Made by a program: the position numbers and the translations under genes. From assembly GCA_002086835.1 (NCBI GenBank), contig MVIG01000002.1:491265-555264 (forward strand): a stretch of 64,000 nucleotides of DNA, read 5' to 3'. A model generated the notes under the pieces. The model did not search any database, was not told the origin of the DNA, and was given only the letters and a program-made list of their open reading frames with translations. Shown one piece after another: positions 3,875 through 26,612 of this stretch. Position 1 is the stretch's first letter, and every line of letters starts with the position of its first letter. This DNA comes from Mycolicibacterium porcinum (GTDB lineage: Bacteria; Actinomycetota; Actinomycetes; Mycobacteriales; Mycobacteriaceae).

Positions 3875-4267
3875 ATGCTCAATCCCCAACAGCGCCAGGT
3901 GTTCGCCACCTTGGCCGAGACCCTGATCCCGGCCGGCGACACCATGCCGTCGGCCACCACCGCGGAGGTGTCCGGTGCACTGCTCGACCAGGTCCTGGGC
4001 TACCGGCCCGACCTCGTCGACGCGCTCACCGCGGCCCTGGACTCCAGCGCCGGTCAGGATCCCGAAGCCGCGCTGGACACCCTGTCCGCCGAGCGGCCCG
4101 ACCAGTTCGAAGCACTGACGGTCCTGGCAGCGGGTGCCTACTTCCTCAGCCCGGTGGTGAAAGCTGCCATGCCCTACGACGCGGCGCCCCGGCCGGCGCG
4201 CGACGACATGGACACCTATGTGGACATGCTCGAGACCGTCGTCGACCGCGGCTTCACGATCCGCTGA
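3875..4267 (+). CDS. Gluconate 2-dehydrogenase subunit 3-like protein
   Basis: This small 130-residue protein begins LNPQQRQVFATLAETLIPAGDTMPSA, the pattern of the gluconate 2-dehydrogenase subunit 3 family, which partners GMC flavoproteins. Typical members carry a Tat signal; this one starts directly with the domain, consistent with the partner also lacking a signal peptide. It is 8 bases downstream of the GMC gene and 33 bases before the permease. It probably stabilises or passes electrons from the large subunit, which is inferred from the family. Confidence 0.75.
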   Translation: MLNPQQRQVFATLAETLIPAGDTMPSATTAEVSGALLDQVLGYRPDLVDALTAALDSSAGQDPEAALDTLSAERPDQFEALTVLAAGAYFLSPVVKAAMPYDAAPRPARDDMDTYVDMLETVVDRGFTIR

Positions 4268-4300
4268 TCCGGCCGATCCCACTGAACAAGGACGTCTTTC

Positions 4301-5716
4301 ATGTCGCATGACAGTGCCTCGAGGGTCGAGTACCTGACCATCCAGCCGGTGCCTGAATCGCAGCGCACCGGAAAGGTGCGCCACCTTTTCTCGTTCTGGT
4401 TCACCGTCCAGATCATCCCGCTCGCCGTGGTCACAGGTCTTCTGGGGCCGACGATCTACAAGCTGGACGTCACCTCGACGATCATCGCGATCGTTCTCGG
4501 CAGTGTCGTGGGTGCGGTCTTCATGGCCCTGCACTCGGTGCAGGGGTCGGGCCTCGGTGTGCCGCAGATGATCCAGGCGCGCGCCCAGTTCGGGATGTAC
4601 GGGTCACTGCTGGTGATCGTCGTCGTAATCCTCGCGTACGTCGGCTGGATCGTCTCCCTGATGATATTGGCGCAGCAGACCCTGGTCGCGGTCTTCCCAT
4701 CTCTGAATTCTGTTGTGGCACTTGCCGTCAGTACGGCCCTCACGCTGGTCACCGTCGTGGTCGGCTACCAGCTCATCCTCCGGCTGAACCGGGTGATGGT
4801 CTGGCTCTCGGGCCTGGCCTTGCTGTTCACCCTCGGCTACACCGCAATCGCCGCGGCGCACGGCGGCATCGGCGGCGGCGTCGGTGGCGCCTTCAACTGG
4901 ACCGGCTTCCTGGGCATGGCATCGGTGGCCGGAATCTGGCAGCTTTCGTATGCGCCGTATGTCTCGGACTACTCGCGCTATCTACCGTCCTCGACCACCC
5001 CGCGTTCGGCGTTCTGGTTCACGTACTTCGGCACACTGCTGGGTGCCGCCGGAGCGATGATCGTCGGTGCGCTCCTCGTGGCGGGCCTGGGCGCCGATGC
5101 CCAACTGGCGAGTCTTTCGCGCATCATGCCCGGCCCGCTGTTCGTCTTCGTGATGCTCGTGTTCTTCTTCGGGGCCATCGATGCCGGTGTCATCAATATG
5201 TACGGATCGTCACTGTGCACGCTGACCTGCATCCAGGCCTTCAAACTCAAGTGGTCGCCGAAGTCCTCGGCCAGGAACATCACAGCGACAGCGATCGCGG
5301 TCGTGGTCTTCGTCGCCGCCGTCGGATTCTCCGATGACTTCCTCGTTCAGTACTCCAACTTCATCAGCATCCTGATCTACCTGCTGATTCCGTGGAGCAT
5401 CGTCAACCTGATCGACTACTACGTGGTGAAGAAGGGGCATTACGACCCAGCCTCGTTCAGCGACCCGAAGAGTGGATACGGCGCCTTCAACGTGCCGGCC
5501 GTGCTCAGCTACTTCCTCGGCTTCGTCGTCCAAATCCCCTTCATGTCAACGGCGTTCTATCAAGGTGCGATTGCCGGCAGGATCGGTGGCATCGATACGG
5601 CGTGGATTGTGGGGACGATCGCGACGTTCTTCATCTACCTCGGTCTGATCAAGCTGTGGCGGGTACGCGGGGCCGAGCAGATGCAGCCCGCCCTCGCTGC
5701 CGAGAGTGCGCGCTGA
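4301..5716 (+). CDS. NCS1-family nucleobase/allantoin-type permease
   Basis: This 471-residue integral membrane protein has about twelve hydrophobic segments. The family signature GLGVPQMIQARAQFGMYGS lies near residues 85-105, and YAPYVSDYSRYLP near residue 215. The NCS1 family imports cytosine, purines, allantoin, hydantoins or pyridoxine by proton or sodium symport. It follows the GMC oxidoreductase genes in the same direction and lies between two PucR regulators, so it probably imports the substrate of that pathway. The exact substrate cannot be read from the sequence. Confidence 0.85.
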   Translation: MSHDSASRVEYLTIQPVPESQRTGKVRHLFSFWFTVQIIPLAVVTGLLGPTIYKLDVTSTIIAIVLGSVVGAVFMALHSVQGSGLGVPQMIQARAQFGMYGSLLVIVVVILAYVGWIVSLMILAQQTLVAVFPSLNSVVALAVSTALTLVTVVVGYQLILRLNRVMVWLSGLALLFTLGYTAIAAAHGGIGGGVGGAFNWTGFLGMASVAGIWQLSYAPYVSDYSRYLPSSTTPRSAFWFTYFGTLLGAAGAMIVGALLVAGLGADAQLASLSRIMPGPLFVFVMLVFFFGAIDAGVINMYGSSLCTLTCIQAFKLKWSPKSSARNITATAIAVVVFVAAVGFSDDFLVQYSNFISILIYLLIPWSIVNLIDYYVVKKGHYDPASFSDPKSGYGAFNVPAVLSYFLGFVVQIPFMSTAFYQGAIAGRIGGIDTAWIVGTIATFFIYLGLIKLWRVRGAEQMQPALAAESAR

Positions 5717-14729: not shown

Positions 14730-15896
14730 TCAGCGGGTCAGCGGGTCGTGCTGGATGCGTTCGACCGGAGCCCCCCGCTCGACCAGGGCGGCTTTGGTGG
14801 CGGTGACCATGTCCGGTCCGCCGCAGATGAGGATCTGCCGATCGCCCCAGTTGCCGTACCTGGTCACCACCTCGGCCAGGGTGCCGGTCTGGCGCACATG
14901 CAGGCCGCGTGGCGGCTGGACGCTCGGATACTGGCCGGCCCAGGGTGGGTCGGTGCTGTATTCCGACACCGGGGTCACCGACAACCACGGATTGGTCGAG
15001 GCGATGTGCCACAGCGTTTTCAGGTCGTACAGGTCGCAGGGAAAGCGGCCACCGAAGAACAGGTGCACGCGCGGATTCTCGCCGTGCAACGTCATGTCCA
15101 TGATGATGTTGCGCAGTGGGGCCAGGCCCGTGCTGCCCGCGACCATCAGCACGTCTTCACCGTCGCGGTCGACGTGCAACCCGCCGTGCGGGCTGGACAT
15201 GCGCCAGCGGTCCCCGATCTTGGTCTCGGCGACGATCGCGGTGCTCACCATGCCGCCGGGTACGGACCGGATGTGGAACTCGATGCCCCCGGACCGGTCG
15301 GAGGGGACCGCCGGGCTCAGGTAGCGCCACCGGCGCGGCCATTGCGGCACCTGGACGGTCACGTACTGGCCGGGGTGATAGAACAGCGCCTGGTCGAGCT
15401 GCAGCCGGATCACCGAGACGTCGCGGGTGACCCGGTGGTGCTCGATCACGGTGCCGTCGCAGTAGGCCGGGGAGTCCTCGGCGTCGGCAGCTCCGCGCAT
15501 CACCCCGATGATCAATGCCACGGCATCGCGGGTGGCCTCGGCCAGCCGGCCATCCCATTCGGGCTCGAGGTGGCGGTGCAGCGCGTTGTACAGCGCCTCC
15601 TGCATGGAGTCGTAATGGCTCTGCGTCACACCGTATTTGCGATGGTCGCGCCCGAGTTGAGCCAGGAACGCCACCGGCTCCTCGGCGCGCTGCGCGATCA
15701 GCTCCCCGAACAGCCAGGTGAGGGCGCGGGCAAAGACGTCGCGCTGGCTGTCCATGTCGGGAGGGAACAGGTCGCGGGCCGAGAGGTCGGTGGCGAACCA
15801 CTGGGTGTAGAAGTCGCGGATCAGCGTCGCGGAGCCCTGCTTGGGGTCGACAGCGTTCTGGAGTGTCTCCAGTGCTTGACGGTCATCGAGTCCCAC
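14730..15896 (-). CDS. Flavohaemoglobin-like globin-FAD/NAD reductase (mycobacterial type II-like)
   Basis: This 388-residue fusion has an N-terminal globin (residues 1-140) with FYTQWF in helix B and RDHRKYGV supplying the proximal His. The reductase half follows: FAD domain with HPGQYVTVQVP and WRYLSPA, NAD(P) domain with AGSTGLAPLRNII and ICGGPDMV. The usual FAD-stacking RxYSxS motif is altered to RYLSPA. This resembles mycobacterial type II flavohaemoglobins such as Rv0385, which are reported to oxidise D-lactate rather than act as classical NO dioxygenases. Its 3' neighbour is the aldose epimerase, and its start overlaps the end of the upstream membrane protein gene. Confidence 0.8.
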   Translation of the reverse strand: MGLDDRQALETLQNAVDPKQGSATLIRDFYTQWFATDLSARDLFPPDMDSQRDVFARALTWLFGELIAQRAEEPVAFLAQLGRDHRKYGVTQSHYDSMQEALYNALHRHLEPEWDGRLAEATRDAVALIIGVMRGAADAEDSPAYCDGTVIEHHRVTRDVSVIRLQLDQALFYHPGQYVTVQVPQWPRRWRYLSPAVPSDRSGGIEFHIRSVPGGMVSTAIVAETKIGDRWRMSSPHGGLHVDRDGEDVLMVAGSTGLAPLRNIIMDMTLHGENPRVHLFFGGRFPCDLYDLKTLWHIASTNPWLSVTPVSEYSTDPPWAGQYPSVQPPRGLHVRQTGTLAEVVTRYGNWGDRQILICGGPDMVTATKAALVERGAPVERIQHDPLTR

Positions 15897-16917
15897 GACG
15901 TCGCATCATAGGCGCGGAACTTCCCGGCCGCCGCAAAGCGGCGATGATCACCAACGTCAGCCCGGCCAGCACCCAGCAACTGAGCACGATGATCGCCAGG
16001 TCCGCGCCGGCGCCGCCGAAGTATGCCGTGGATCGCAGCAGCGTCGCGGTGGCACCCTGCGGCAACAATTGGCCGAGCTGGCCCCAGCCGGCGGGCAGCA
16101 TCTCGGGCGCGGCCGTCAACCCCGACAGCGGGTTGCCCAACAGCAGGGCCAGCGCGGCGCCCACCCCGAGGCCGACCTTGCCGAACAGTGAGCCCAGCCC
16201 GAGAACGGTCAGTCCGGCTGCGGCGATCCCCAGTGTCAGGCCGGTGGCCACGCCCCAGAAGTCCGAGTCGATCGAACCGAATACGTACTGGAGCAGGGCC
16301 GCGACGGTGATGCCTGCGACTGCGGAGAACACGATCGCGGTGACCAGCCGGGTCCACACCTCACGCCGCAACACCAGCACGAGCGCGACGGCGGGCAGGA
16401 TCCCGGCCAGGGTGATCGGCAGGGCCGACGCGGCCAGGCCGGTGCCGCGCGGATCCTGGCTGGTCGGCGGGGCCAGGTCTTCGGTGTGCAAGGTCATGCC
16501 GGAGTGTGTGGCGATGCCGGTGCCGATCTGGGTGAGCAGTTGCGCGACGGCGGGGCTGCCCCCGGTGGCGGTGAGCAGGGTCGGGCCCTCTGGTCCGAAA
16601 GCGATGCCGCCGTAGATGTTTCGATTGAGGATCGCCTCACGCAGGGCTTCCGCGCCGGGGTAGTAGGTCACCGCGAAGGCGCCTGGAGCCTGCTGTTCCA
16701 GGCGTTCGGCCACCTGGCTGGTGGCGGCCTGGGGTCCTGCAGCACCGATCGGAATGTCGTTGGGCTTGGAACGCGAGGCGGGCAGGGCGAAGGCGATGGC
16801 GACGATCGCGATCGCGATGGTCAGCACGGCGATGACGCCCACGGCACGCAGGGCGGCGGGCGGTTCGTGTTCGGGTGCCGCGTGGTGGACGGGCGTCGTG
16901 GCCTGGGGCGAGAGCAT
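15883..16917 (-). CDS. ABC-2/YhgE-type membrane protein
   Basis: This 344-residue protein has one N-terminal membrane segment (residues 25-46), an extracytoplasmic domain of about 120 residues, and about five or six C-terminal hydrophobic helices (LPITLAGILPAVALVLVL onward). This is the layout of YhgE/Pip or ABC-2 permease-like proteins. It is divergent from a TetR regulator, and a palindrome covers the shared promoter region, so it is probably TetR-controlled and efflux- or envelope-related. Its 3' end overlaps the flavohaemoglobin start by 14 bases. Confidence 0.65.
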   Translation of the reverse strand: MLSPQATTPVHHAAPEHEPPAALRAVGVIAVLTIAIAIVAIAFALPASRSKPNDIPIGAAGPQAATSQVAERLEQQAPGAFAVTYYPGAEALREAILNRNIYGGIAFGPEGPTLLTATGGSPAVAQLLTQIGTGIATHSGMTLHTEDLAPPTSQDPRGTGLAASALPITLAGILPAVALVLVLRREVWTRLVTAIVFSAVAGITVAALLQYVFGSIDSDFWGVATGLTLGIAAAGLTVLGLGSLFGKVGLGVGAALALLLGNPLSGLTAAPEMLPAGWGQLGQLLPQGATATLLRSTAYFGGAGADLAIIVLSCWVLAGLTLVIIAALRRPGSSAPMMRRRGTR

Positions 16918-16983
16918 CGTTCCCTCTTTTCATCCGATGTTGAATTAATCGGTTGGTGTGAGGGTAGCGCTCGGTTCGAATGT

Positions 16984-17001
16984 TTTCAACAGTCATTGAA
17001 A
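16984..17001. promoter_or_regulatory. Putative TetR operator in divergent promoter
   Basis: TTTCAA-N6-TTGAAA is a perfect inverted repeat ending four bases before a TAGTGT -10-like hexamer (17005-17010). That hexamer is six bases from the regulator ATG at 17017, so the message would be leaderless. The repeat would cover the -35 region of the regulator and the upstream region of the divergent membrane protein gene. Confidence 0.6.
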
Positions 17002-17016
17002 TGATAGTGTCGATGT

Positions 17017-17646
17017 ATGGCTTCACCAGGGAAAACTGCGACCCGGCGCGGGCGACGTCAGGGTGACCCGGTGTCCCGCGACGCGGTGCTGGCGGCCGCC
17101 AAGCTGCGCTTCGCGGCCGAGGGATATGAGAAGACGACGCTGCGCGCCATCGCTGCGGACGCGCACGTCGACGCGTCGATGGTGCTCTATCTGTTCGGCT
17201 CGAAGGCCGACCTGTTCCGGGAATCGCTGCGCCTGATCCTGGATCCCGACGTGCTGGTGGCTGCCCTGCAGGGGCCGCCCGAGGAGATTGGCGAACGCAT
17301 GGTCCGCGTCTACCTGAAGATGTGGGAGACGCCCGATACCGCCGCCAGCATGCGGGTCATGCTGCAATCGGCAACATCGAATTCCGATGCGCACGTGGCA
17401 TTTCGAACGTTCATGCAGGACTACGTGCTCACCGCGGTGTCGGGCGTCCTCGGTGGTGGCGAGCAGGCCCGATTGCGCGCGATGCTCGCCGCATCGAACC
17501 TGGTCGGAACCGCGATGCTGCGATACGTGATGGCCGTGCCGCCGATGGCGACACTCGACGGCGAGGAGGTCGTGCGGCTGCTCGCGCCGACGGTGACCCG
17601 CTACCTCACCGCCGACGCGGATGAGCTGGGGTTGCCGGAGTTGTAG
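17017..17646 (+). CDS. TetR-family transcriptional regulator
   Basis: This 209-residue regulator has a TetR helix-turn-helix at about residues 22-65 (AVLAAAKLRFAAEGYEKTTLRAIAADAHVDASMVLYLFGSK in pieces). The C-terminal ligand domain resembles the AcrR/TetR_C_17 type found in mycobacteria. It is divergent from the YhgE/ABC-2-like membrane protein and probably represses it and itself through the palindrome at 16984-17001. Its stop is four bases from the convergent EspD/H-like gene. Confidence 0.85.
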   Translation: MASPGKTATRRGRRQGDPVSRDAVLAAAKLRFAAEGYEKTTLRAIAADAHVDASMVLYLFGSKADLFRESLRLILDPDVLVAALQGPPEEIGERMVRVYLKMWETPDTAASMRVMLQSATSNSDAHVAFRTFMQDYVLTAVSGVLGGGEQARLRAMLAASNLVGTAMLRYVMAVPPMATLDGEEVVRLLAPTVTRYLTADADELGLPEL

Positions 17647-17650
17647 GCGC

Positions 17651-18238
17651 TCAGTGCTGCGGGTCGGAATGCCGTGCGATCAGCGCAAGCTCGGCTTCAC
17701 CGGCCTGCTCCGGCGTTGCGAACGGCATATTCGTGCCCACGAATTCCCGGGCTTCACGGAAATCCATGCCCTGCTCGACCAGCATGTTCACCACTCCGAT
17801 GTGCACAAGCGCGGTTGCGCGCTTGGCGGCCACGCCGGCGACGAACCGGACCTCGTCGGCCAGTTGCGCCTCGGTCAGGGTGGTCACCTTCGGGTCCAGG
17901 TCCACCTGGGCCACCGAGCCGTTGAGATAGGCCGTGACAGTGACGGTTCCTGGCGGGTTGATGGCCTGGACGACAGGGATCTGTTCTTCGTCCGTCGGCT
18001 CAGTTTCGGCGTCGATGGCACCGAACCCGTCGTCCTCGTCCTCGACTTCGTGGTGGGCGTGGTCGTGAACCCCGTCGAGGCCCACCCCGTGATCGACTGC
18101 CTCGGCGGTGTCGTAGTCGTCCAGGGCATCGAGTCCGGAGGCGTCGTCGTCGAACACCGGAGTGTCGAAATCGAGCGCGTCGAGGCCGTTGTCGTCGGCG
18201 TCGGCGTCGTCCCAGTCGTCGGAACCGTGAGGCGTCAT
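17651..18238 (-). CDS. EspD/EspH-like ESX secretion-associated protein (DUF2694 type)
   Basis: This 195-residue protein has a very acidic N-terminal half rich in LDALD/DDYD repeats. A folded domain follows, beginning near residue 90: INPPGTVTVTAYLNGSVAQVDL, then TEAQLADEVRFVAGVAAKRA and LREFVG-like AREFVGTNMPFATPEQAGEAE. This matches the layout of mycobacterial EspD (Rv3614c) and EspH (Rv3867). Such proteins assist or stabilise ESX-1 substrates in the cytosol. It is the third gene of a minus-strand cassette after EspA/E-like and EspC-like genes, separated from the latter by 46 bases. No core ESX gene is nearby. Confidence 0.8.
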   Translation of the reverse strand: MTPHGSDDWDDADADDNGLDALDFDTPVFDDDASGLDALDDYDTAEAVDHGVGLDGVHDHAHHEVEDEDDGFGAIDAETEPTDEEQIPVVQAINPPGTVTVTAYLNGSVAQVDLDPKVTTLTEAQLADEVRFVAGVAAKRATALVHIGVVNMLVEQGMDFREAREFVGTNMPFATPEQAGEAELALIARHSDPQH

Positions 18239-18284
18239 ACGTCAGTCATATCCCATCGCGGTCCGCAGACCCACAATCTCGAGC

Positions 18285-18605
18285 TCACCGCGGGTGCATC
18301 TCCTTGCCGATGTCTGCTCCGGCTTGGGCGTCGGTCTCGTCATATTGTGCTGCGGAGACCTTCAGTTTCTCCGACATATCCTGCGATACGGATGCCATTG
18401 CCGCGCATGCGGCGGCGCGGGCATTGTCGGCCATCGCCAGCGCGGTGATGCTGACAGCACAGACCGGACCGTGATTTACCAACATGGAAGCGCAGACACC
18501 GTCGGTGACTTCGGCTGTGAGCTCGATGTACTTCTTTGCCATGCCCTGACCGTCGGACAGTTCCTGGATGTGGGAAGTGGTAACGCCGAGTGTGCCCTCA
18601 GACAT
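18285..18605 (-). CDS. EspC/EspF-like type VII secretion target
   Basis: This small 106-residue helical protein begins SEGTLGVTTSHIQELSDGQ. It has two helices and ends with the type VII export signature YDETD (Y88-x3-D92). Size and ending fit the EspC/EspF (DUF2580) family, secreted through ESX-1. I chose the ATG at 18605 because it overlaps the end of the EspA/E-like gene by eight bases; longer readings enter a low-complexity region. It probably forms a complex with the adjacent EspA/E-like protein, as EspC does with EspA. Confidence 0.8.
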   Translation of the reverse strand: MSEGTLGVTTSHIQELSDGQGMAKKYIELTAEVTDGVCASMLVNHGPVCAVSITALAMADNARAAACAAMASVSQDMSEKLKVSAAQYDETDAQAGADIGKEMHPR

Positions 18606-19488
18606 TGATCGATCCTTCCCCTGTCCCTGTCGATGAGCCGGTCGACGGAGACCACGGTGTTGAAGTCGTATTTCCACCCGGCGGCGATACGAACGCTGGC
18701 GGAGCTCCCTTGGGCTTGGCGCCGGCAGCGACTTGTTGATAGGCGTTGGCTGCTTGCTGGAACTTCTGCGCATTCGCCACGGTCAGCGCCTCCATCGTCC
18801 CAAATGCCCCTAAAGCGATGGGCATCGCTCCTGCGACTGCACCGAGCTCGAACGCCATCTGTTGCGCCGGTCCCGTCGGCGGAATTTTTCCGATGACGAT
18901 CGCAATCGGGATGCAGATGGTCAGCGACGTCGCAACGATCTCGAGCGCGGTGCGTGTGTTGTCGATCTGCTGCGCCTGGTTGGCGATAATGCCTTTTACT
19001 TCCGTGTCGATTTTGCCCATCGCGGCTGCACGTTCCTGCTGCCGTTCGTTCTCACCGGCGTAGGCTTTCGATCCGCTGCCATGCCACTGCTCGGTGGGCG
19101 TTGCGCGCTCCAAGGTGTCTGAGATCGCCTTGAATCCGTTTGCTCCCTTAGCGAACCGATCACCGGTCTCCGGATCGCCGACGCCGCACATCAGCTGCAT
19201 GCCATTAATGGCGAGAAGGGCCGCGCCGATGATGGGTGTACCGAAGCCTGTAATCCTTTTTGCCGACGAGCTGTATGAGCTGAAGCTGGTAGGGGTCACC
19301 CCGAAGAGTTTGTCCGCGCCAAACTCGCCGACCATCTGCGTTGCACCTATGCCGTCTGCCACGAAGCCGAGTTTGGCGAGGCGGGCTTTCGCCGGATCCT
19401 CCGAATCCTTGGCGTCCAGATGCTCCCAAAAGCCCTTGCCTGCGAAGCCGATCTCGACAATCTTCTGGACGTGCTCCAGCTTGCTCAT
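18598..19488 (-). CDS. EspA/EspE-like type VII secretion substrate
   Basis: This 296-residue protein has an N-terminal region with GFVADGIGATQMVGEFG, a hydrophobic helix, and the WxG turn in EQWHGSGSKAY at about W135. Next come a long coiled region, a hydrophobic stretch LTICIPIAIVIGKIPP and a Pro/Ser/Thr/Gly-rich tail. This is the EspA/EspE family plan. It heads a three-gene cassette (EspA/E, EspC/F, EspD/H types) lacking EccA-E, MycP or WXG100 genes, so secretion would depend on an ESX system elsewhere. Bases in this region look less GC-rich than the flanks, suggesting acquisition by transfer. Confidence 0.8.
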   Translation of the reverse strand: MSKLEHVQKIVEIGFAGKGFWEHLDAKDSEDPAKARLAKLGFVADGIGATQMVGEFGADKLFGVTPTSFSSYSSSAKRITGFGTPIIGAALLAINGMQLMCGVGDPETGDRFAKGANGFKAISDTLERATPTEQWHGSGSKAYAGENERQQERAAAMGKIDTEVKGIIANQAQQIDNTRTALEIVATSLTICIPIAIVIGKIPPTGPAQQMAFELGAVAGAMPIALGAFGTMEALTVANAQKFQQAANAYQQVAAGAKPKGAPPAFVSPPGGNTTSTPWSPSTGSSTGTGEGSINV

Positions 19489-19630
19489 TGGCCCCCTCCC
19501 CCTATGCGCTTCGTCACCCTAACAGCGTGATGACTGACCTCAGCGCGGCAATTTGAGCGGGCATCGGTCTCGCCGGCGAGGGGTGCGGCTATGGGGTACT
19601 GGGCCGACGTGGCCTGGTTAGACTGCGGGC

Positions 19631-20071
19631 ATGCTGGTTCTGGGGGGAGGGTTTGTCCCGCTGTCGGGACGAAGTTGGCCGGACACTCCGCAAGAAGCAC
19701 TGGCTCGTGCGATCTTCTTAATCCTCTTGGCAGCAGTGATCATCCCGGCCGTGTATTGGGTTTGCTGGTGGTTCACTACGAATCGGCCGATGGCCTGCCA
19801 GCGACAACTGGCGAAGGCGTCGGCCGAGTTCCGTGCCCGCTGGCCGGCTGGCCAACTCAACTGTGCGCCCTATGACCAGTTGGACGAGGAGGCGGAGCGG
19901 TGTTGGCTGTTGATTCTTCTGCTCGAGGAGCGGCAACTGGAGGCCACCGGTGGTGACGAGTCATCTATCGACGTTGCCGCTGTGCGTCACTGGCTCGACA
20001 GCGTGGTGGCGGCATTGAACGCAGCCGCCGCGCGAGATCGGCAGGCCGCCGGCGCGGGGGATTCGTGGTGA
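19631..20071 (+). CDS. Small membrane-anchored protein, copy A of an A-B tandem duplication
   Basis: I do not recognise this family. The 146-residue protein has a short N-terminus, one strong membrane segment (LARAIFLILLAAVIIPAVYW, about residues 24-43, then VCWWF) and a cytoplasmic or periplasmic helical domain. That domain starts with EFRARWPAGQLNCAPYDQLDEEAERCW (in pieces; RWP at 70-72, APY at 79-81) and ends in a helix VRHWLDSVVAALNAA. The same motifs recur in the gene at 20571 (A'). It faces away from the Esp-like cassette across 142 bases. The next gene overlaps its stop by four bases (GTGA). Confidence 0.65.
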   Translation: MLVLGGGFVPLSGRSWPDTPQEALARAIFLILLAAVIIPAVYWVCWWFTTNRPMACQRQLAKASAEFRARWPAGQLNCAPYDQLDEEAERCWLLILLLEERQLEATGGDESSIDVAAVRHWLDSVVAALNAAAARDRQAAGAGDSW

Positions 20072-20535
20072 CAGCGAGCGCTACCTTCGACGTAGGTGCC
20101 TTCATCGAGGGGTCCGTGCCTTTTGCGATTATTGGGCTGGCCACCATCATCGGCGGTGCTGTCTTCTTCTTTGGGATCGATTGGTACAGCAGAAAGGCCT
20201 CGTACCGCGAGCTCGCCCGCCTGTATACGCACTCCTCAGCGTTCTGGGCGCGCTGGCCTGGAGATCGTCTTTGGGTGGCACCGTATGGTGAGTTGGCTGC
20301 TGAAGCTGATAGGTGCGACGAGCTCATCAGAAGTATCGGCGGCAAAAGGCTGAAGCTCAGTGTGAAAATGGCGCTGACGGAGAAGAAGCGCGCCAAGGAG
20401 TTACGCGCTGAATTCCGTCAGCAGCTCGAACGCGAGGAAGCCATGTATCAGCAGATGCTCGCAACCGTCCGTAGCGCCATGAACTACGCGATCGCTCAAG
20501 GTAGGGGCCCGCAGGCGCGGCCGTACAGCGCGTGA
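20068..20535 (+). CDS. Small membrane-anchored protein, copy B of an A-B tandem duplication
   Basis: This unrecognised 155-residue protein has a membrane segment at about residues 17-36 (VPFAIIGLATIIGGAVFFF), then AFWARWPGDRLWVAPYGEL (WARWP at 60-64, APY at 71-73). A charged helix or coiled coil (MALTEKKRAKELRAEFRQQ) follows, and a strongly conserved end YQQMLATVRSAMN...QGRGPQ. The end is nearly identical in copy B' at 21060. The GTG at 20068 overlaps the stop of copy A, indicating coupled translation and probably a hetero-complex of A and B. Confidence 0.65.
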   Translation: MTASATFDVGAFIEGSVPFAIIGLATIIGGAVFFFGIDWYSRKASYRELARLYTHSSAFWARWPGDRLWVAPYGELAAEADRCDELIRSIGGKRLKLSVKMALTEKKRAKELRAEFRQQLEREEAMYQQMLATVRSAMNYAIAQGRGPQARPYSA

Positions 20536-20570
20536 GTCCAGGTGGGCCGCCGCGCGTTTAGGCTGTGGCC

Positions 20571-20999
20571 GTGCGAGGGGACGAAGCGGCAATGGAGTTT
20601 GTCGCCCGTGGACGGCTGCCGAGCACACCGGAGGAATGGCTCGGGCTTTTGGCGGCCATTGGTGTGATGGTCGCAACCTATGTGCTGGTGCAGATTTGGG
20701 CCGGCCGCGGCGTAGCCAAGGAGTTGGATGCGCTGGAAGCGCGGCTTTCAGCCGAATCATCCCAGTTCAGGTCGCGGTGGCCGGCGCAGCTGCTGTGGCA
20801 GGCGCCGTACGCCGAGCTCGAAGCGGAGGCGGAGCGTTCTTGGAGGATGGTCTTCCTACTGGAGCAGCGCCGCGATCTCGGGCACCGAAGCCGAGGTGGT
20901 GACTTTGATGCCCAACTCGCTGCCGTCCGCAACTGGATTACGACAGTCGTCAATGCAATGAATGTCGTTGCTTCCCGTGGACGGCAATCCGATGTATGA
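20571..20999 (+). CDS. Small membrane-anchored protein, copy A' of the duplication
   Basis: This copy of the gene at 19631 has a membrane segment LGLLAAIGVMVATYVLVQIW followed by FRSRWPAQLLWQAPYAELE and AEAERSW, then AVRNWITTVVNAMNVVASRGR. I chose the GTG at 20571 because TAGGCT (20559-20564) lies six bases upstream, the spacing of a leaderless mycobacterial promoter; an alternative is the ATG at 20592. The separate promoter suggests the A'-B' pair can be expressed apart from A-B. Function unknown. Confidence 0.65.
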   Translation: MRGDEAAMEFVARGRLPSTPEEWLGLLAAIGVMVATYVLVQIWAGRGVAKELDALEARLSAESSQFRSRWPAQLLWQAPYAELEAEAERSWRMVFLLEQRRDLGHRSRGGDFDAQLAAVRNWITTVVNAMNVVASRGRQSDV

Positions 21000-21059
21000 C
21001 CATGTGCTTGCTGCGGGCTCGCATGAGCCAAAGGGATTTCTTACCTGACGGTTGGTCTG

Positions 21060-21434
21060 GTGTTGTCTGCGGTCTTCGCTGCCGGAGCGATTGGCTTGGC
21101 CATGATCCCGTCAAAGGCAGGCGAACGACTGGATGCCGAGCGGGCAAGGCTGTTCACCCACTCGGAAGCATTTTGGGCGCGATGGCCGGGCAATCGTGTG
21201 TTCGAGGCGCCCTATGACGAATTGTTCGTCGAGGCGACCCGTTGCGAGCGGGTCATCGAGATCTATCAACGGCAGCGCGGCACGAATGTCCGCCCGGCAA
21301 CGGGACAAGCTCGAAAAATCTACGACGTAGCCAACCGCCAAATCGCCACTTACCAGCAGATGCTCGCAACCGTGCACAACGCCATGAACCATGCGATCTC
21401 ACAGGGTCGCGGCCCTCAACTGCCTTCGAATTGA
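21060..21434 (+). CDS. Small membrane-anchored protein, copy B' (probable N-terminal frameshift)
   Basis: This copy of the gene at 20068 has AFWARWPGNRVFEAPYDEL and the end YQQMLATVHNAMNHAISQGRGPQL. The open frame here starts at a weak GTG (21060) inside the membrane segment. An ATG at 20996 overlaps the A' stop exactly as B overlaps A, but it is in another frame. Removing one A from the AAA run at 21030-21032 would join that start to MSQGISYLTVGLVLSAVFAA and restore a full membrane helix. This copy is therefore either a young pseudogene or carries a sequencing error. Its 3' end overlaps the convergent CYTH gene. Confidence 0.6.
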   Translation: MLSAVFAAGAIGLAMIPSKAGERLDAERARLFTHSEAFWARWPGNRVFEAPYDELFVEATRCERVIEIYQRQRGTNVRPATGQARKIYDVANRQIATYQQMLATVHNAMNHAISQGRGPQLPSN

Positions 21435-22039
21435 TTCCGCCCCAACGTATCCACGAAGGTAGGGCCGCGGCGCTCTAGTTCACCGCGGTATTCGTCGGCC
21501 CAGGTGCTGAATGGATGATGGGCCAGATGCTCATTGCGGAACCGGTCGTCCTCGGACACCTCGGAAACGCAGAAAGCGGGAATGGCGAGATCGACCACGG
21601 GGCCGCCGCGCTCGACTTCGGCGAGCAGCAGCGGTGCGTTTCTGCCGAGGAACTGGTCGATGATCCAGCCGTCCTCGCCCAGCCACATCGAATAGCGAAC
21701 CTTCGCGATCACATGTTCGGAACGGCCGACGATCTGGGCCGCGATCAATGGATCGAGCTCGCGTTCGGCCTCGTAGCGGGTGCCGCCGACGGCGGGACCT
21801 TTCGCGGTCATGGTCCCGAGCGAATCCTCGCCCAATGTCGCGACAAGGTGGGCGGGGGTGGCAGTCAATTCGGCGGGAGCGGGCCCTTGCACCCGGACGC
21901 GTACCGCGTATCCGTCGGACGCGAACAGATACGCCTGCACGATGAGGGCAGGTGCGGGATCCGACGCGGCCGCCGCGGGCAATTCGCGGACAAAAAACTT
22001 CCGCTCGAATTCGAAATCACCGAAACCTGATTCGGACAT
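21416..22039 (-). CDS. CYTH-domain (triphosphate tunnel) protein
   Basis: The 207-residue protein carries the CYTH signature ExExK at the start (FEFERKFFVRELP, about residues 8-20). Alternating charged strands of the tunnel fold follow: AVRVRVQG, GTMTAKGP, RYEAERELD, VIAKVRYSM, WIIDQFLG and LLLAEVERGG. Family members hydrolyse triphosphates or polyphosphate, or make cAMP; the specific reaction is not evident. I chose the ATG at 22039 over an upstream GTG. Its end overlaps copy B' convergently. Confidence 0.8.
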   Translation of the reverse strand: MSESGFGDFEFERKFFVRELPAAAASDPAPALIVQAYLFASDGYAVRVRVQGPAPAELTATPAHLVATLGEDSLGTMTAKGPAVGGTRYEAERELDPLIAAQIVGRSEHVIAKVRYSMWLGEDGWIIDQFLGRNAPLLLAEVERGGPVVDLAIPAFCVSEVSEDDRFRNEHLAHHPFSTWADEYRGELERRGPTFVDTLGRNQFEGS

Positions 22040-22076
22040 GCGCACACCGTAGCCCGATCTGCATCGAATGCGTCGT

Positions 22077-22745
22077 CTATAGGGCGTGAATTCCCTTGTA
22101 GAGCACGAGGAGGCCGATCACCACGAGAATCGCGGCAACCAACACGGGGTGATTGCGTTCCATCCATTCCTTGAGCCGGGCAAGCGCCGGGTCCAAGCGC
22201 TCACCGGACACCGCATAGGCGAGGATCGGCAAGGCCACGGTCGAGCCGGCTGCCACCACGAAATAGAGCCCCGCAGCCCAGACACCGGGTTGGCCGAGAC
22301 CGGCGCTGCCGATGGCCAAACCCGCTGCCACGCAGATGAACAGCACTTTGGGGTTCACCACGGTCAGCGCCAGGCCCGCAGCACCTGCCCGGACCGGCGT
22401 GAGCTTGCTCAGGCTGGCCATCCACTTGGGGCTGTGCTCTGACTTGGCCCGGGTCAGATAGCGGTACACACCGAAGGCGATCAAGGCGGCACCGACCACG
22501 ATGCGCAACCACGACGCCCACGTCGGGGGCTCGTCGAGCCGGCCGAACAGTCCGGAGATGGCGACGAAGATGGCGGTCAGCGCGGCCAGACCGAGAATCC
22601 ACCCGGCGAGGAAGGACAGACCAGTCGGCCGTGGGCGGGGAGTGTGGAGCACGAGTACCGCCGGAATAATCGACAGCGGTGACAGCGCCACCACCATGGC
22701 CAGCGGGATGAGTTCGGCGAAAACCGAACCCCAACTCTCCGTCAT
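22077..22745 (-). CDS. GAP-family (Gap/LysE-like) membrane protein
   Basis: This 222-residue protein has six hydrophobic segments, starting FAELIPLAMVVALSPLSIIPAVLVLHTPRPR. That opening is characteristic of the mycobacterial GAP family, whose members are linked to export of glycolipids such as glycopeptidolipids. A second family segment is LTVVNPKVLFICVAAG near residue 127. The ATG at 22745 is ten bases after the stop of the glycosyltransferase gene, so the two are probably co-transcribed. Together they suggest glycosylation and surface transport of a lipid; the substrate is inferred only. Confidence 0.8.
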   Translation of the reverse strand: MTESWGSVFAELIPLAMVVALSPLSIIPAVLVLHTPRPRPTGLSFLAGWILGLAALTAIFVAISGLFGRLDEPPTWASWLRIVVGAALIAFGVYRYLTRAKSEHSPKWMASLSKLTPVRAGAAGLALTVVNPKVLFICVAAGLAIGSAGLGQPGVWAAGLYFVVAAGSTVALPILAYAVSGERLDPALARLKEWMERNHPVLVAAILVVIGLLVLYKGIHAL

Positions 22746-22754
22746 GAGCAAAAC

Positions 22755-23933
22755 CTAGCAACCCGCGACGATGTCTTCGACGGCATCGGCGGCGTGCTCC
22801 GGTCCGCCGTGCGCGTGGATCTCCTCGCGGATGGTGTCGAGGTTGCGTCGGATCTGACGATCGGCGGCGACACCGAGCACCGCGTCGCGCAGTTCCGCCA
22901 CACTGGGCAGCCGATCGGGGAGGTGACGGCCGACTCCGATGGTCTCCAGACGTGCGGCATTCGCCGGCTGGTCGACCGCCTGCGGTATCGCCACCATCGG
23001 CACCCCGAACCACAGACCCTCGGTGCACGAGCCCATTCCGGCGTGGGTGATGAAGCAGTCGGCCCGTTGCAGCACGGCCGGCTGGGGAACCGACTCGTGC
23101 ACCTCAACCCACGACGGAACCGGGCCGAGGGCGTCGACGTCGGCGCGGCCGGTCGCCAGCACCAGGCGCCAGCCCTGCCCGTCGAGCGCATTGATCACGT
23201 TGCGGTACACGTCGGCTCGTTCCGTGTAGGCGGTGCCGAACGCCAGCAGGGCCAATGGGCCGTCGCCGGGCGGTGGGGTCCAATCGCCCGGATCCAGGCG
23301 TCGCGGGTCGATGCACGGGCCGACGAATCGGTAGCGGTCGCCGACACGGTCGGAGTGCCGTTGCATCACTCGCGGGATGAGCACCAGGCAGTGGCGCGGC
23401 ACGCCGGTCACCTCGTCGAAGGTCAATCCCGACCGGGAATCGCGGAGCCACGTGTCGAATGCCTCGCGATAGGCCTGTCCGCTCGGACTGTTGAAGATCG
23501 GGTCGAGGATCTCGGCCATGTCCTCGTGATAGCCCTCCCAGGCCACCTCGCTGGGTGACAACTGCGCCGCGGGCACGCCCCAGGATTCGGCGGCCACGGG
23601 TCCGGCCATGCCGCCGATGTCGTAGAGCACCAGGTCGGGCCGGTCGGCGTCGAGGGCAGCGTGGACCTGGGGCAGAACATGCACGGCCTCGTCGAAGAAC
23701 ATCCGCATGCCGGCCACGGGGTCGGCTTCGTCGAAGGACTCGGGCGCCCCGGGCGCCCCCGGGAGCATCGAGGTGCAGGCGATGACGTCGGCTCCGGTCG
23801 GTGTCACGAGGCCGGCCAGATGGGCTCCGACCAGGTAGCTGACCCGATGGCCGCGTCGGACCAGCTCGTGGACCACCGCCAAATGTGGGTACATGTGACT
23901 GGGGACGGACGCGGCGACGACGGCGATGTGCAC
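22755..23933 (-). CDS. MGT/GT1-family glycosyltransferase
   Basis: This 392-residue GT-B enzyme has an N-terminal acceptor domain starting [28 protein letters not shown] and a C-terminal donor domain with [35 protein letters not shown]. The latter is the UDP-glycosyltransferase signature of the macrolide/UGT group (His and Glu of the donor site at about 292 and 300). It is divergent from clpB over 132 bases containing a HAIR, and is followed by a GAP-family exporter gene. The likely acceptor is a lipid or small hydrophobic molecule. Confidence 0.85.
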
Positions 23934-23965
23934 GTGGTCGAGTCTGCCCGGAGAAAATTTTTAAA

Positions 23966-23986
23966 GTTGAGCGGAACAGACTCAAC
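23966..23986. promoter_or_regulatory. HAIR operator between the glycosyltransferase and clpB
   Basis: GTTGAGC-N7-ACTCAAC has the 7-7-7 geometry of HspR sites, with 11 of 14 arm positions matching the consensus. It lies about 80 bases before the clpB GTG, and only 33 bases before the divergent glycosyltransferase start. HspR control of clpB is established in actinomycetes; control of the glycosyltransferase is inferred from position. Confidence 0.8.
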
Positions 23987-23989
23987 CTT

Positions 23990-24029
23990 GACTACGTTGT
24001 ACAACGCGACAAGCATTTTCCACGTAGTC
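23990..24029. promoter_or_regulatory. Second dyad in the clpB leader
   Basis: GACTACGT (23990-23997) and ACGTAGTC (24022-24029) form a perfect 8-base inverted repeat with 24 bases between. The palindrome GTTGTACAAC (23996-24005) overlaps the left arm. They lie between the HAIR and the clpB start, so they could be another regulator's site, or fold in the leader RNA. No run of T follows. Confidence 0.4.
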
Positions 24030-24065
24030 GAAAAGGCCGTGGATAGACATAGAAGGGGAGGTGTC

Positions 24066-26612
24066 GTGGACTCGTTCAACCCGACCACGAAGACCCAGGC
24101 GGCGCTGACCTCGGCGTTGCAGGCGGCTACCGCCGCAGGCAATCCACAGATCACCCCCGCTCATTTGTTGATGGCGTTGCTGACGCAGAACGACGGCATC
24201 GCCGCACCACTGTTGGAGGCGGTCGGAGTCGAGCCCGCAACCATCCGCGCAGAGGCCGAGCGCCTCATCGGCCGGCTGCCGAGCGCGAGTGGCTCCAGTT
24301 CGCAGCCGCAGCTTTCGCCGGAATCGATCACCGCGATCACCACCGCGCAGAACCTCGCGACCGAGATGGATGACGAGTACGTCTCCACCGAACACCTGAT
24401 GGTCGGCCTGGCCACCGGCAGCTCCGACGTCGCCAAGTTGCTCACCAATCACGGTGCGTCTCCGCAGGCGCTGCGTGAGGCATTCGTCAAGGTGCGCGGC
24501 AGCGCCCGGGTCACCAGCCCGGATCCCGAGGGCAGTTACCAGGCGCTGGAGAAGTACTCCACCGACCTGACCGCCCGCGCCCGGGAAGGCAAGCTCGATC
24601 CAGTTATCGGTCGCGACACCGAGATTCGTCGCGTCGTACAGGTGCTGAGCCGCCGCACCAAGAACAACCCGGTGCTCATCGGCGAGCCCGGCGTCGGCAA
24701 GACGGCGATCGTCGAGGGCCTGGCCCAGCGCATCGTCGAAGGCGACGTGCCGGAAAGCCTGCGGGACAAGACCGTCATCAGCCTGGACCTCGGCTCGATG
24801 GTGGCCGGTGCCAAGTACCGCGGTGAATTCGAGGAACGACTCAAGGCCGTCCTCGATGACATCAAGAACTCGGCCGGCCAGGTGATCACCTTCATCGACG
24901 AGCTGCACACCATCGTGGGTGCCGGTGCCACCGGCGAGTCCGCGATGGACGCCGGCAACATGATCAAGCCCATGCTGGCCCGTGGCGAGCTGCGGCTGGT
25001 CGGCGCGACCACCCTCGAGGAGTACCGCAAGTACATCGAGAAGGACGCCGCCCTGGAGCGTCGCTTCCAGCAGGTGCTGGTCGGCGAGCCGTCCGTCGAG
25101 GACACCGTCGGCATCCTGCGCGGCCTCAAGGACCGCTACGAAGTGCACCACGGCGTGCGGATCACCGACTCGGCGCTGGTCGCCGCGGCCACACTGAGTG
25201 ACCGCTACATCACCAGCCGGTTCCTGCCGGACAAGGCCATCGACCTGGTCGACGAGGCCGCGTCCCGGCTGCGCATGGAGATCGACTCGCGGCCCGTCGA
25301 GATCGACGAGGTCGAGCGGTTGGTCCGCCGCCTCGAGATCGAGGAGATGGCGCTGTCCAAAGAAGAGGACGACGCGTCGAAGGAGCGGTTGGAGAAGCTG
25401 CGCGGCGAGCTGGCCGACTACAAGGAGAAGCTGGCCGAGCTGACGACTCGTTGGCAGAACGAGAAGGGCGCCATCGACGTCGTCCGCGAGTACAAGGAGC
25501 AACTGGACACGCTGCGCGGTGAGGCCGACCGTGCCGAACGCGACGGCGATCTGGCCAAGGCCGCCGAGCTCCGGTACGGACGCATCCCCGAGGTCGAGAA
25601 GAAGCTCGACGCCGCTCTGCCGGTGGCCGAGGCTCGCGAGAACGTGATGCTCAAGGAGGAGGTCGGCCCCGACGACATCGCCGATGTGGTCGAGGCGTGG
25701 ACCGGCATCCCTGCCGGGCGCATGCTCGAAGGCGAGACGGCCAAGCTGCTCCGCATGGAGGAGGAGCTGGGCAAGCGTGTCATCGGCCAGACAGAGGCCG
25801 TGGTCGCGGTTTCCGACGCGGTGCGCCGGTCGCGCGCCGGTGTCGCCGATCCCAACCGGCCGACGGGCTCGTTCATGTTCCTGGGCCCGACCGGCGTCGG
25901 TAAGACCGAGCTCGCAAAAGCGTTGGCGGAGTTCCTGTTCGACGACGAGCGGGCGATGGTCCGCATCGACATGAGCGAGTACGGCGAGAAGCACTCGGTG
26001 GCCCGCCTGGTTGGTGCGCCTCCGGGATACATCGGCTACGACCAGGGTGGTCAGCTGACCGAGGCCGTGCGTCGGCGTCCGTACACGGTGGTGCTGTTCG
26101 ACGAGATCGAGAAGGCCCACCCGGACGTGTTCGACGTGCTGCTGCAGGTGCTCGACGAGGGCAGGTTGACCGACGGCCAGGGCCGCACGGTCGACTTCCG
26201 CAACACGATCCTGATCCTGACCTCCAACCTGGGTGCCGGCGGCACTCCGGAGCAGGTGATGGCCGCGGTGCGGGCCGCGTTCAAGCCGGAGTTCATCAAC
26301 CGGCTCGACGATGTGCTGATCTTCGAGGCACTCAAGCCCGATGAACTGGTGTCGATCGTCGACATCCAGCTCCAGCAGCTCGACAAGCGGCTGGCGCAGC
26401 GCAGGCTGTCGCTGGACGTGTCGTTGGAGGCCAAGAAGTGGCTGGGCGACCGTGGGTTCGACCCGCTGTACGGTGCCCGCCCGCTGCGCCGACTGGTGCA
26501 GCAGGCCATCGGCGATCAACTCGCCAAGAAGCTGCTGGCCGGTGAGGTGCACGACGGAGACGTGGTGCCGGTCAACGTCAGCGCGGACGGCGAAAGCCTC
26601 GTCCTGGGCTGA
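24066..26612 (+). CDS. clpB: Disaggregase ClpB
   Basis: This 848-residue Hsp100 has an N-terminal Clp_N repeat domain ([18 protein letters not shown] onward) and AAA1 with Walker [14 protein letters not shown] and Walker [11 protein letters not shown]. The M-domain coiled coil follows (about residues 400-530), then AAA2 with [14 protein letters not shown] and [12 protein letters not shown]. It rescues aggregated proteins together with DnaK. The GTG at 24066 follows AGGGGAGG and matches the usual start of mycobacterial ClpB; longer readings run back through the promoter. HspR control through the upstream HAIR is expected. A strong terminator follows. Confidence 0.97.

What the first reader, a model, noticed from the sequence alone, without database searches (positions are those of the whole stretch)
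19631..21434. A-B-A'-B' tandem array of unrecognised membrane-anchored proteins facing an orphan Esp cassette
Four adjacent small genes alternate between two related types. All have one N-terminal membrane helix followed by RWP and APY motifs. The B types share the near-identical end YQQMLATVxxAMNxAIxQGRGPQ. In both pairs a start codon overlaps the preceding stop by four bases, suggesting an A-B hetero-complex duplicated as a unit. I do not recognise the family. The array is divergent from an EspA/C/D-like type VII cassette across only 142 bases, so the two may be one mobile functional module, for example accessory membrane factors for that substrate set. The link is inferred.
Basis: partly seen in the sequence, partly recalled or inferred. 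Interest (0 to 1): 0.85.

Follow-up and report, generated by a model that had tools for sequence, protein, structure and literature searches.

The report
Membrane-protein pairs tied to ESX-1 substrates
A small undescribed family of paired membrane proteins in some mycobacteria sits beside one class of genes for proteins secreted by the ESX-1 system and has moved with them between two places on the chromosome, so the two probably work together.

Summary
The array is real. A and B are two old branches of one undescribed family: one membrane helix, then a helical domain predicted to face the cytosol. I read 16 A/B clusters in 12 Mycobacterium genomes (17 pairs, 2 single genes). All 16 lie head-to-head with an EspA- or EspC-type gene of an EspACD-like cassette, at only two places: inside the ESX-1 locus (8) or at a site beside clpB (8, the window's site). 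The window's genome has both. Trees of A+B and of EspA+C+D each need two changes of site; one origin for the four clpB-site type-1 cassettes is rejected (p-AU 0.0018). Two details fail: the second pair is not a recent copy of the first (A2 is 82% identical to a pair standing alone elsewhere, 38% to A1), and the four-base overlap holds for pair 1 only, because B2's frame is interrupted near its start. Function is inferred: a membrane-tethered A-B pair that docks EspA/C/D-type substrates at ESX-1. Binding, secretion and co-expression are untested. The distribution is narrow (9 of 198 genus genomes), so the clusters are not independent cases.

The parts
19631..20071 (+). A1, type-1 A protein, 146 aa, one N-terminal membrane helix (about residues 28-48)
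20065..20535 (+). B1, type-1 B protein, 156 aa; start overlaps the A1 stop by 7 (GTG 20065) or 4 bases (GTG 20068)
20565..20999 (+). A2, type-2 A protein, 144 aa; 82% identical to A2 of G523 (L107), 38% to A1
21060..21434 (+). B2, type-2 B protein, ORF as it stands (124 aa); reading frame interrupted near the 5' end, with matching first codons from 20992 in another frame
19489..19630 (.). 142-base divergent intergenic stretch; TAGACT at 19619-19624 just before the A1 start codon (pattern TA.ACT in 10 of 10 type-1 loci), -10-like TAGGGT towards EspA at 19521-19516 (promoter reading inferred)
18598..19488 (-). EspA-type gene
   Evidence: PF18879 E 9e-25; tree
18285..18716 (-). EspC-type gene (ORF open to 18773)
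   Evidence: PF10824 E 7.3e-19
17651..18238 (-). EspD/EspH-like gene
   Evidence: 36% identity, E 7e-26, to the espH-position gene of the own ESX-1 locus; no significant Pfam match
14730..17646 (.). left border of the site: flavohaemoprotein-like gene 14730-15896 (-), membrane protein 15883-16917 (-), TetR-type regulator 17017-17646 (+)
21416..26612 (.). right border of the site: CYTH-like gene 21416-22045 (-, name recalled, no Pfam match), Sap/SfLAP gene 22077-22751 (-), glycosyltransferase-like gene 22755-23933 (-, name recalled), clpB 24060-26612 (+, recognised by eye)

Best explanation
[quoted passage not shown] Each sits in the inner membrane by one helix and its helical domain faces the cytosol. 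A and B are made together and probably pair with each other. The most likely job is docking: they hold the EspA-EspC complex and its EspD-like chaperone at the cytosolic face of the ESX-1 membrane complex. Shown here: the family, the linkage, shared movement of A/B with EspACD, coupled stop and start codons, purifying selection. Predicted: topology and helical fold. Inferred: the A-B complex, binding to Esp proteins or to ESX-1, and any effect on secretion.
For: All 16 A/B clusters read face an EspA (14) or EspC (2) gene; in the 198-genome sample 12 of 12 A/B clusters lie within 2.6 kb of an EspA hit, 11 of 12 within 500 bases. All are at the ESX-1 locus (8) or the clpB site (8). A+B, EspA+C+D and joint trees each need two changes of site; p-AU 0.0018 against one origin at the clpB site. 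9 of 9 A/B genomes in the sample have an ESX-1-type eccD, 106 of 198 overall (chance 0.003 if genomes were independent, which they are not). Stop of A and start of B overlap or lie 1 base apart in 14 of 15 pairs. After the membrane helix the chain is more positive than before it in 31 of 36 proteins. Another EspA clade has a different membrane protein beside 7 of 9 members, as if such cassettes need a membrane partner.
Against: Many EspA genes have no A/B: 27 of 43 in the tree, 4 of them close kin of A/B-linked ones, so A/B is not needed for EspACD in general. The lineage is narrow (9 of 198 genomes), so the clusters are not independent. C-type homologues have no Esp neighbour (0 of 9), so the domain is not bound to secretion. 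In G135:C78 the A-B type does not follow the EspACD tree. The window's B2 is interrupted, so pair 2 may be dispensable. No interaction, secretion or expression data.
Confidence: 0.45

Rival explanations
1. Polymorphic self-identity or immunity module: the EspACD variant is a signal or effector passed between cells and the matching A/B pair in the membrane recognises or neutralises it, as in kin recognition or effector-immunity systems.
For: Cassettes change faster than flanking genes (dN/dS 0.14-0.64 against 0.04-0.13), are stacked and exchanged, and some lie between eccD and eccE (G192, G135:C78, G021), the part of the M. smegmatis esx1 locus where the mid genes and the self-identity gene Msmeg0070 lie (PMC9040860, abstract and passages).
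Against: The A/B domain is predicted to face the cytosol. Candidate Msmeg0070-like proteins of G124 show no similarity to A/B (best blastp E 1.9). I saw no toxin domain in EspA/C/D (Pfam). Variation between strains of one species was not examined.
Confidence: 0.15
2. Chaperone or assembly factor of another kind: A/B stabilise EspA/EspC or help build an EspC-containing envelope structure, without docking to the secretion machine.
For: Same linkage as above. EspD and EspH stabilise EspA/EspC and EspE (PMC6107294, passages); EspC filaments are in the title of a paper cited in PMC8217490 (reference list passage only).
Against: An EspD/EspH-like chaperone gene is already in the cassette. The cytosol-facing domain does not fit an outer structure.
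Confidence: 0.2
3. Passengers: A/B are lineage genes that happen to sit at two recombination hotspots where Esp cassettes also collect, with no working link.
For: Narrow distribution (9 of 198). The clpB site also holds Esp cassettes without A/B (L109, L110, L111, L113, L114, L117, L118). C-type homologues live away from Esp genes (9 of 9).
Against: The same head-to-head arrangement at two unrelated sites, an invariant box before the A start in 10 of 10 type-1 loci and joint movement are hard to get by hitchhiking.
Confidence: 0.15

Closest known systems
Lap1/Lap2 targeting factors of type VIIb LXG effectors (PMC9600955, abstract and passages)
   Same: Two small helical proteins encoded beside one secreted substrate; there shown to form a complex with it and to be needed for its export.
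   Different: Lap proteins are described there as small WXG100-like helical proteins and no membrane helix is mentioned in the passages I saw; A/B carry one. No sequence kinship was tested directly; a LapA3/LapA4 structure appears only as a non-significant fold match (E about 3).
EspD and EspH, dedicated chaperones of EspA/EspC and EspE/EspF (PMC6107294, passages)
   Same: Substrate-specific accessory proteins encoded with Esp substrates.
   Different: EspH acts in the cytosol and is YbaB-like; A/B are membrane-bound and unrelated. The cassette here has its own EspD/EspH-like gene as well.
M. smegmatis mid genes, Msmeg0070 (PMC9040860, abstract and passages)
   Same: Polymorphic genes within the esx1 locus, some with a membrane helix; orthologues reported elsewhere in the genome in some species.
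   Different: Msmeg0070 is about 388 aa, proline-rich, membrane helix at 67-89; A/B are about 150 aa. Proteins of Msmeg0070-like make-up in G124 do not resemble A/B. The M. smegmatis sequence itself was not in hand.
espACD-like operon of the M. fortuitum complex (PMC8217490, passages)
   Same: Probably the same kind of Esp cassette as here, reported for strain TNTM28 and M. fortuitum.
   Different: The passages I saw mention neither the facing membrane-protein genes nor movement between two sites.
WXG100 proteins (EsxA/EsxB)

Membership tests
EspACD-like substrate cassette (the genes facing the array) | EspA/EspE-family gene | tested here: met
   PF18879 E 9e-25, cut-off 27 bits, score 87
EspACD-like substrate cassette (the genes facing the array) | EspC-family gene next to it | tested here: met
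   PF10824 E 7.3e-19, above cut-off
EspACD-like substrate cassette (the genes facing the array) | EspD/EspH-family gene next to it | tested here: inconclusive
   36% identity, E 7e-26, to the espH-position gene of the own ESX-1 locus, but no significant Pfam or NCBIfam match
EspACD-like substrate cassette (the genes facing the array) | Secreted by ESX-1 | not testable with these tools
   No secretion data
Lap1/Lap2-type targeting factors | Two small helical genes beside one type VII substrate gene | tested here: met
   14 of 16 clusters hold an A-B pair facing an Esp gene; helical models
Lap1/Lap2-type targeting factors | Membership of DUF3130 or DUF3958 (Lap families) | tested here: not met
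   No such Pfam match for the four window proteins at E 5 or for 29 A/B proteins at E 0.1
Lap1/Lap2-type targeting factors | Pair binds its substrate and is needed for its export | not testable with these tools
   No complex prediction or assay available
WXG100 proteins | WXG100 profile match | tested here: not met
   No match of the four window proteins at E 5 or of 29 A/B proteins at E 0.1
WXG100 proteins | Helical hairpin fold | tested here: inconclusive
Msmeg0070 / mid self-identity proteins | About 380-390 aa, proline-rich, membrane helix near residues 67-89 | tested here: not met
   Intact A/B of the array are 144-156 aa with the helix near 18-48
Msmeg0070 / mid self-identity proteins | Sequence similarity | tested here: inconclusive
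   No blastp hit better than E 1.9 to four mid-region proteins of G124; the M. smegmatis protein itself was not available

The most novel reading that the evidence does not exclude
EspACD plus its own A/B pair is a polymorphic, exchangeable cassette of ESX-1 that gives cells a matched secreted signal and membrane receptor: a second, unrecognised self-identity system beside the mid genes, kept at a second chromosomal site (clpB) and exchanged with the ESX-1 locus.
Probability: 0.13. Interest if true: 0.88.

Novelty: new variant of a known kind. Interest (0 to 1): 0.62.

Why it matters
How EspA/EspC-type substrates are chosen and brought to ESX-1 is not settled, and the accessory factors known to me for them (EspD, EspH) are cytosolic. 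A membrane-bound pair that accompanies one EspACD class is a concrete, testable candidate for the docking step. The traffic between two sites also shows that ESX-1 substrate sets behave as exchangeable cassettes with their own partners.

Tried and rejected
No known family: Pfam, NCBIfam, PHROGs, PADLOC and PDB sequence searches gave nothing convincing for A/B. Best values were E 0.034 (Pfam) for the window proteins and E 0.00099 (a phage holin model, 2 of 29 A/B proteins), which I take as membrane-helix noise. Foldseek of both models against PDB: nothing at E 0.001 or better. Plasmid and phage collections, tblastn with B1: no match at E 0.01. Wider searches: 8 of 401 family genomes and 4 of 298 order genomes match; outside the genus there is one weak hit of 31-36 residues, G224, not followed. 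In those two searches only 9 or 13 candidates per genome were scored, so distant members may be missed.

C-type homologues (9 of the 22 matching genomes, also G519) were considered as the same module and rejected: no EspA/C/D hit in the 6-20 kb fetched around 9 of 9. Four weak hits (G016, G052, G091, G054) were taken as chance; for two (G016, G054) 20 kb was fetched and no Esp gene was found. Recent local tandem duplication was rejected by the tree. Identity with Msmeg0070 was rejected on size and make-up.

Rows dropped before counts: G481 (same contig as M. setense L007); L056 A2 (frame broken) left out of the A/B tree; L056 B2 cut to 130 residues there; window B2 and L056 not in the topology count. 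The match list was cut by the tool, so EspA genes without A/B are undercounted. The 20 comparison EspA loci were the next-best hits, not a random draw. The site group tested was named by position, but after the EspA tree had been seen.

Full report
What is there. The window is Mycobacterium DNA (G000, contig C15; genus from kinship with named records). Four ORFs alternate A-B-A-B at 19631-21434. A1/A2 and B1/B2 are related, and A is related to B. They face an EspA-EspC-EspD-like cassette across 142 bases (EspD by homology only). The claimed four-base overlap holds for pair 1 (7 or 4 bases, depending on the start) but not for pair 2: that ATGA reads another frame, and B2 is interrupted near its start compared with relatives.

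The family. No curated family covers A or B convincingly. An alignment of 29 A/B proteins keeps eight invariant positions, S57 F60 R63 W64 P73 L77 E80 R83 in B1. In 36 proteins (33 A/B, 3 C-type) the 15 residues after the membrane helix are more positive than those before it in 31, equal in 2 and less positive in 3, so the domain is predicted to face the cytosol. AlphaFold2 gives a long first helix through the membrane, a turn at RWP and two further long helices (mean pLDDT 79 and 81, pTM 0.60 and 0.59). The last hairpin of B superposes on WXG100 proteins, but no better than on unrelated bundles, so I draw no kinship from it.

Distribution. Of 198 genus genomes 22 match B1 at E 0.01. Nine carry A/B clusters, nine a distant single gene (C type), four are weak. 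A/B was not found in 189 of 198. Searches of 401 family and 298 order genomes add G481 (the M. setense genome), G523 and one more C-type genome, G519, in this genus, and one weak hit outside it. Named carriers are M. setense, M. houstonense and Mycobacterium sp. GA-1841, URHD0025 and PS03-16.

Linkage. Sixteen distinct A/B clusters in 12 genomes were read: 17 pairs, counting two with an interrupted member (window pair 2, L056), and 2 single genes. All 16 face an EspA gene (14) or an EspC gene (2: L056, L107). Eight are inside the ESX-1 locus: G000:C19, G192, G020, G124, two in G135:C78, G021, G523. Eight are between the flavohaemoprotein-like gene and clpB: window, M. setense, M. houstonense, G128, G042, G135:C56, G049, G523. 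No third place was seen. In the 198-genome sample the 12 A/B clusters lie 194-2555 bases from an EspA match, 11 of 12 within 500. The ESX-1 locus of G000 was checked with family models: EspA/EspE, an EccA1-specific domain, EccB, two FtsK/SpoIIIE, PE, PPE, two WXG100, EccD, EspB, YbaB, EccE and a subtilase, the last named mycosin by NCBIfam. All nine A/B genomes of the sample have an ESX-1-type eccD, against 106 of 198 overall. Much of this may reflect one lineage: eight of the ten genomes with eccD at 90% identity or more to the query carry A/B, two (G119, G176) do not, and the ninth carrier, G042, stands at 77%.

History. In a tree of 40 proteins B forms a group of 17 (96/91) and A one of 18 with the single genes (84/75), and types 1 and 2 recur in both. 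The window's A2 is 82% identical to A2 of G523, where type 2 stands alone, and 38% to its own A1. So the array was most likely made by stacking two old cassette types. M. houstonense has the same stack; GA-1841/G192 shows another with a different second pair. Among 43 EspA proteins, 13 of 16 A/B-linked ones form a group with no A/B-less member (89/88; 12 of them 97/92); the other three lie in a group of seven with four A/B-less ones. Ten type-1 cassettes, analysed as A+B, as EspA+C+D and together, need two changes of site each time; holding the four clpB-site cassettes together is rejected, p-AU 0.0018. In the joint tree the window's nearest cassette is the ESX-1-linked one of G020 (96/93), not the ESX-1 copy in its own genome. 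One disagreement: G135:C78 has window-like EspACD but a divergent A-B type, so partners can be swapped.

Expression signs. The stop of A and the start of B overlap or lie 1 base apart in 14 of 15 pairs, with starts as I chose them. In 10 of 10 type-1 loci TA.ACT stands just before the A start codon, as in leaderless messages, and a second box points towards EspA in most of them. The promoter reading is my inference. dN/dS is 0.20-0.64 for A1, 0.14-0.50 for B1 and 0.17-0.33 for EspA, against 0.04-0.13 for two flanking genes: kept by selection, but changing faster.

A pattern beyond A/B. Another EspA group has its own neighbour, a membrane protein of about 240 aa with several hydrophobic segments, beside 7 of 9 members; three cassettes at the clpB site carry related proteins, one of which was tested and matches DUF2510. 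So Esp cassettes may in general come with a dedicated accessory protein.

How it most likely works. Membrane-tethered, cytosol-facing pairs that follow EspACD cassettes fit a substrate-specific docking factor, comparable in role to Lap1/Lap2 of type VIIb systems (PMC9600955, abstract and passages) and additional to an EspD-like chaperone (PMC6107294, passages). Binding, complex formation and effect on secretion are not shown. Against it stand the many EspA genes without A/B, the narrow lineage and the interrupted B2.

Literature. The searches gave no description of these pairs in the listings, abstracts and passages I saw. An espACD-like operon in the M. fortuitum complex is in print (PMC8217490, passages). 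Only open-licence papers are in that library, so a description elsewhere is not excluded.

Noticed in passing
L109, L110, L111, L113, L114, L117, L118: The clpB site holds other EspA/C/D-type cassettes without A/B in seven further loci; it looks like a general landing place for Esp cassettes in this genus.
   Followed up: partly
L053:14459-15193, L115:4190-4957, L120:4585-5295, L121:5820-6629, L123:4150-4899, L124:4164-5018, L127:4439-5158, L059:13874-14629: A second membrane-protein family (about 240 aa, several hydrophobic segments, no Pfam match for the two tested) beside EspA genes of another group; in L059 it stands next to espL without EspA.
   Followed up: partly
L042-L050, L105:9396-9854: C-type single genes distantly related to A/B, away from Esp genes; in the two read in full they lie beside an SDR-like and a monooxygenase-like gene (recognised by eye).
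   Followed up: partly
L059:18080-18664: A lone EspD-like gene (80% identical to the window's) beyond mycP in G021, where other species have the whole cassette; perhaps a remnant.
   Followed up: no
L098:7662-8855 and 4213-5454: Two proline-rich proteins with one membrane helix just after eccD in G124, of the make-up described for Msmeg0070; possibly a duplicated mid gene.
   Followed up: no
L053:232-1599 (-) and 17834-19201 (+): Two ORFs of 456 aa with the same first 70 residues, transposase-like by eye, flank the ESX-1 end with its cassettes in G124; a possible vehicle for movement.
   Followed up: no
L046:13622-14014: A small protein that looks like the ESX-1 regulator EspR (recalled resemblance only) near a C-type gene.
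   Followed up: no
L056:9339-9776: A2 of G135:C56 has a broken frame near its start, as B2 has in the window; type-2 pairs may be decaying.
   Followed up: no
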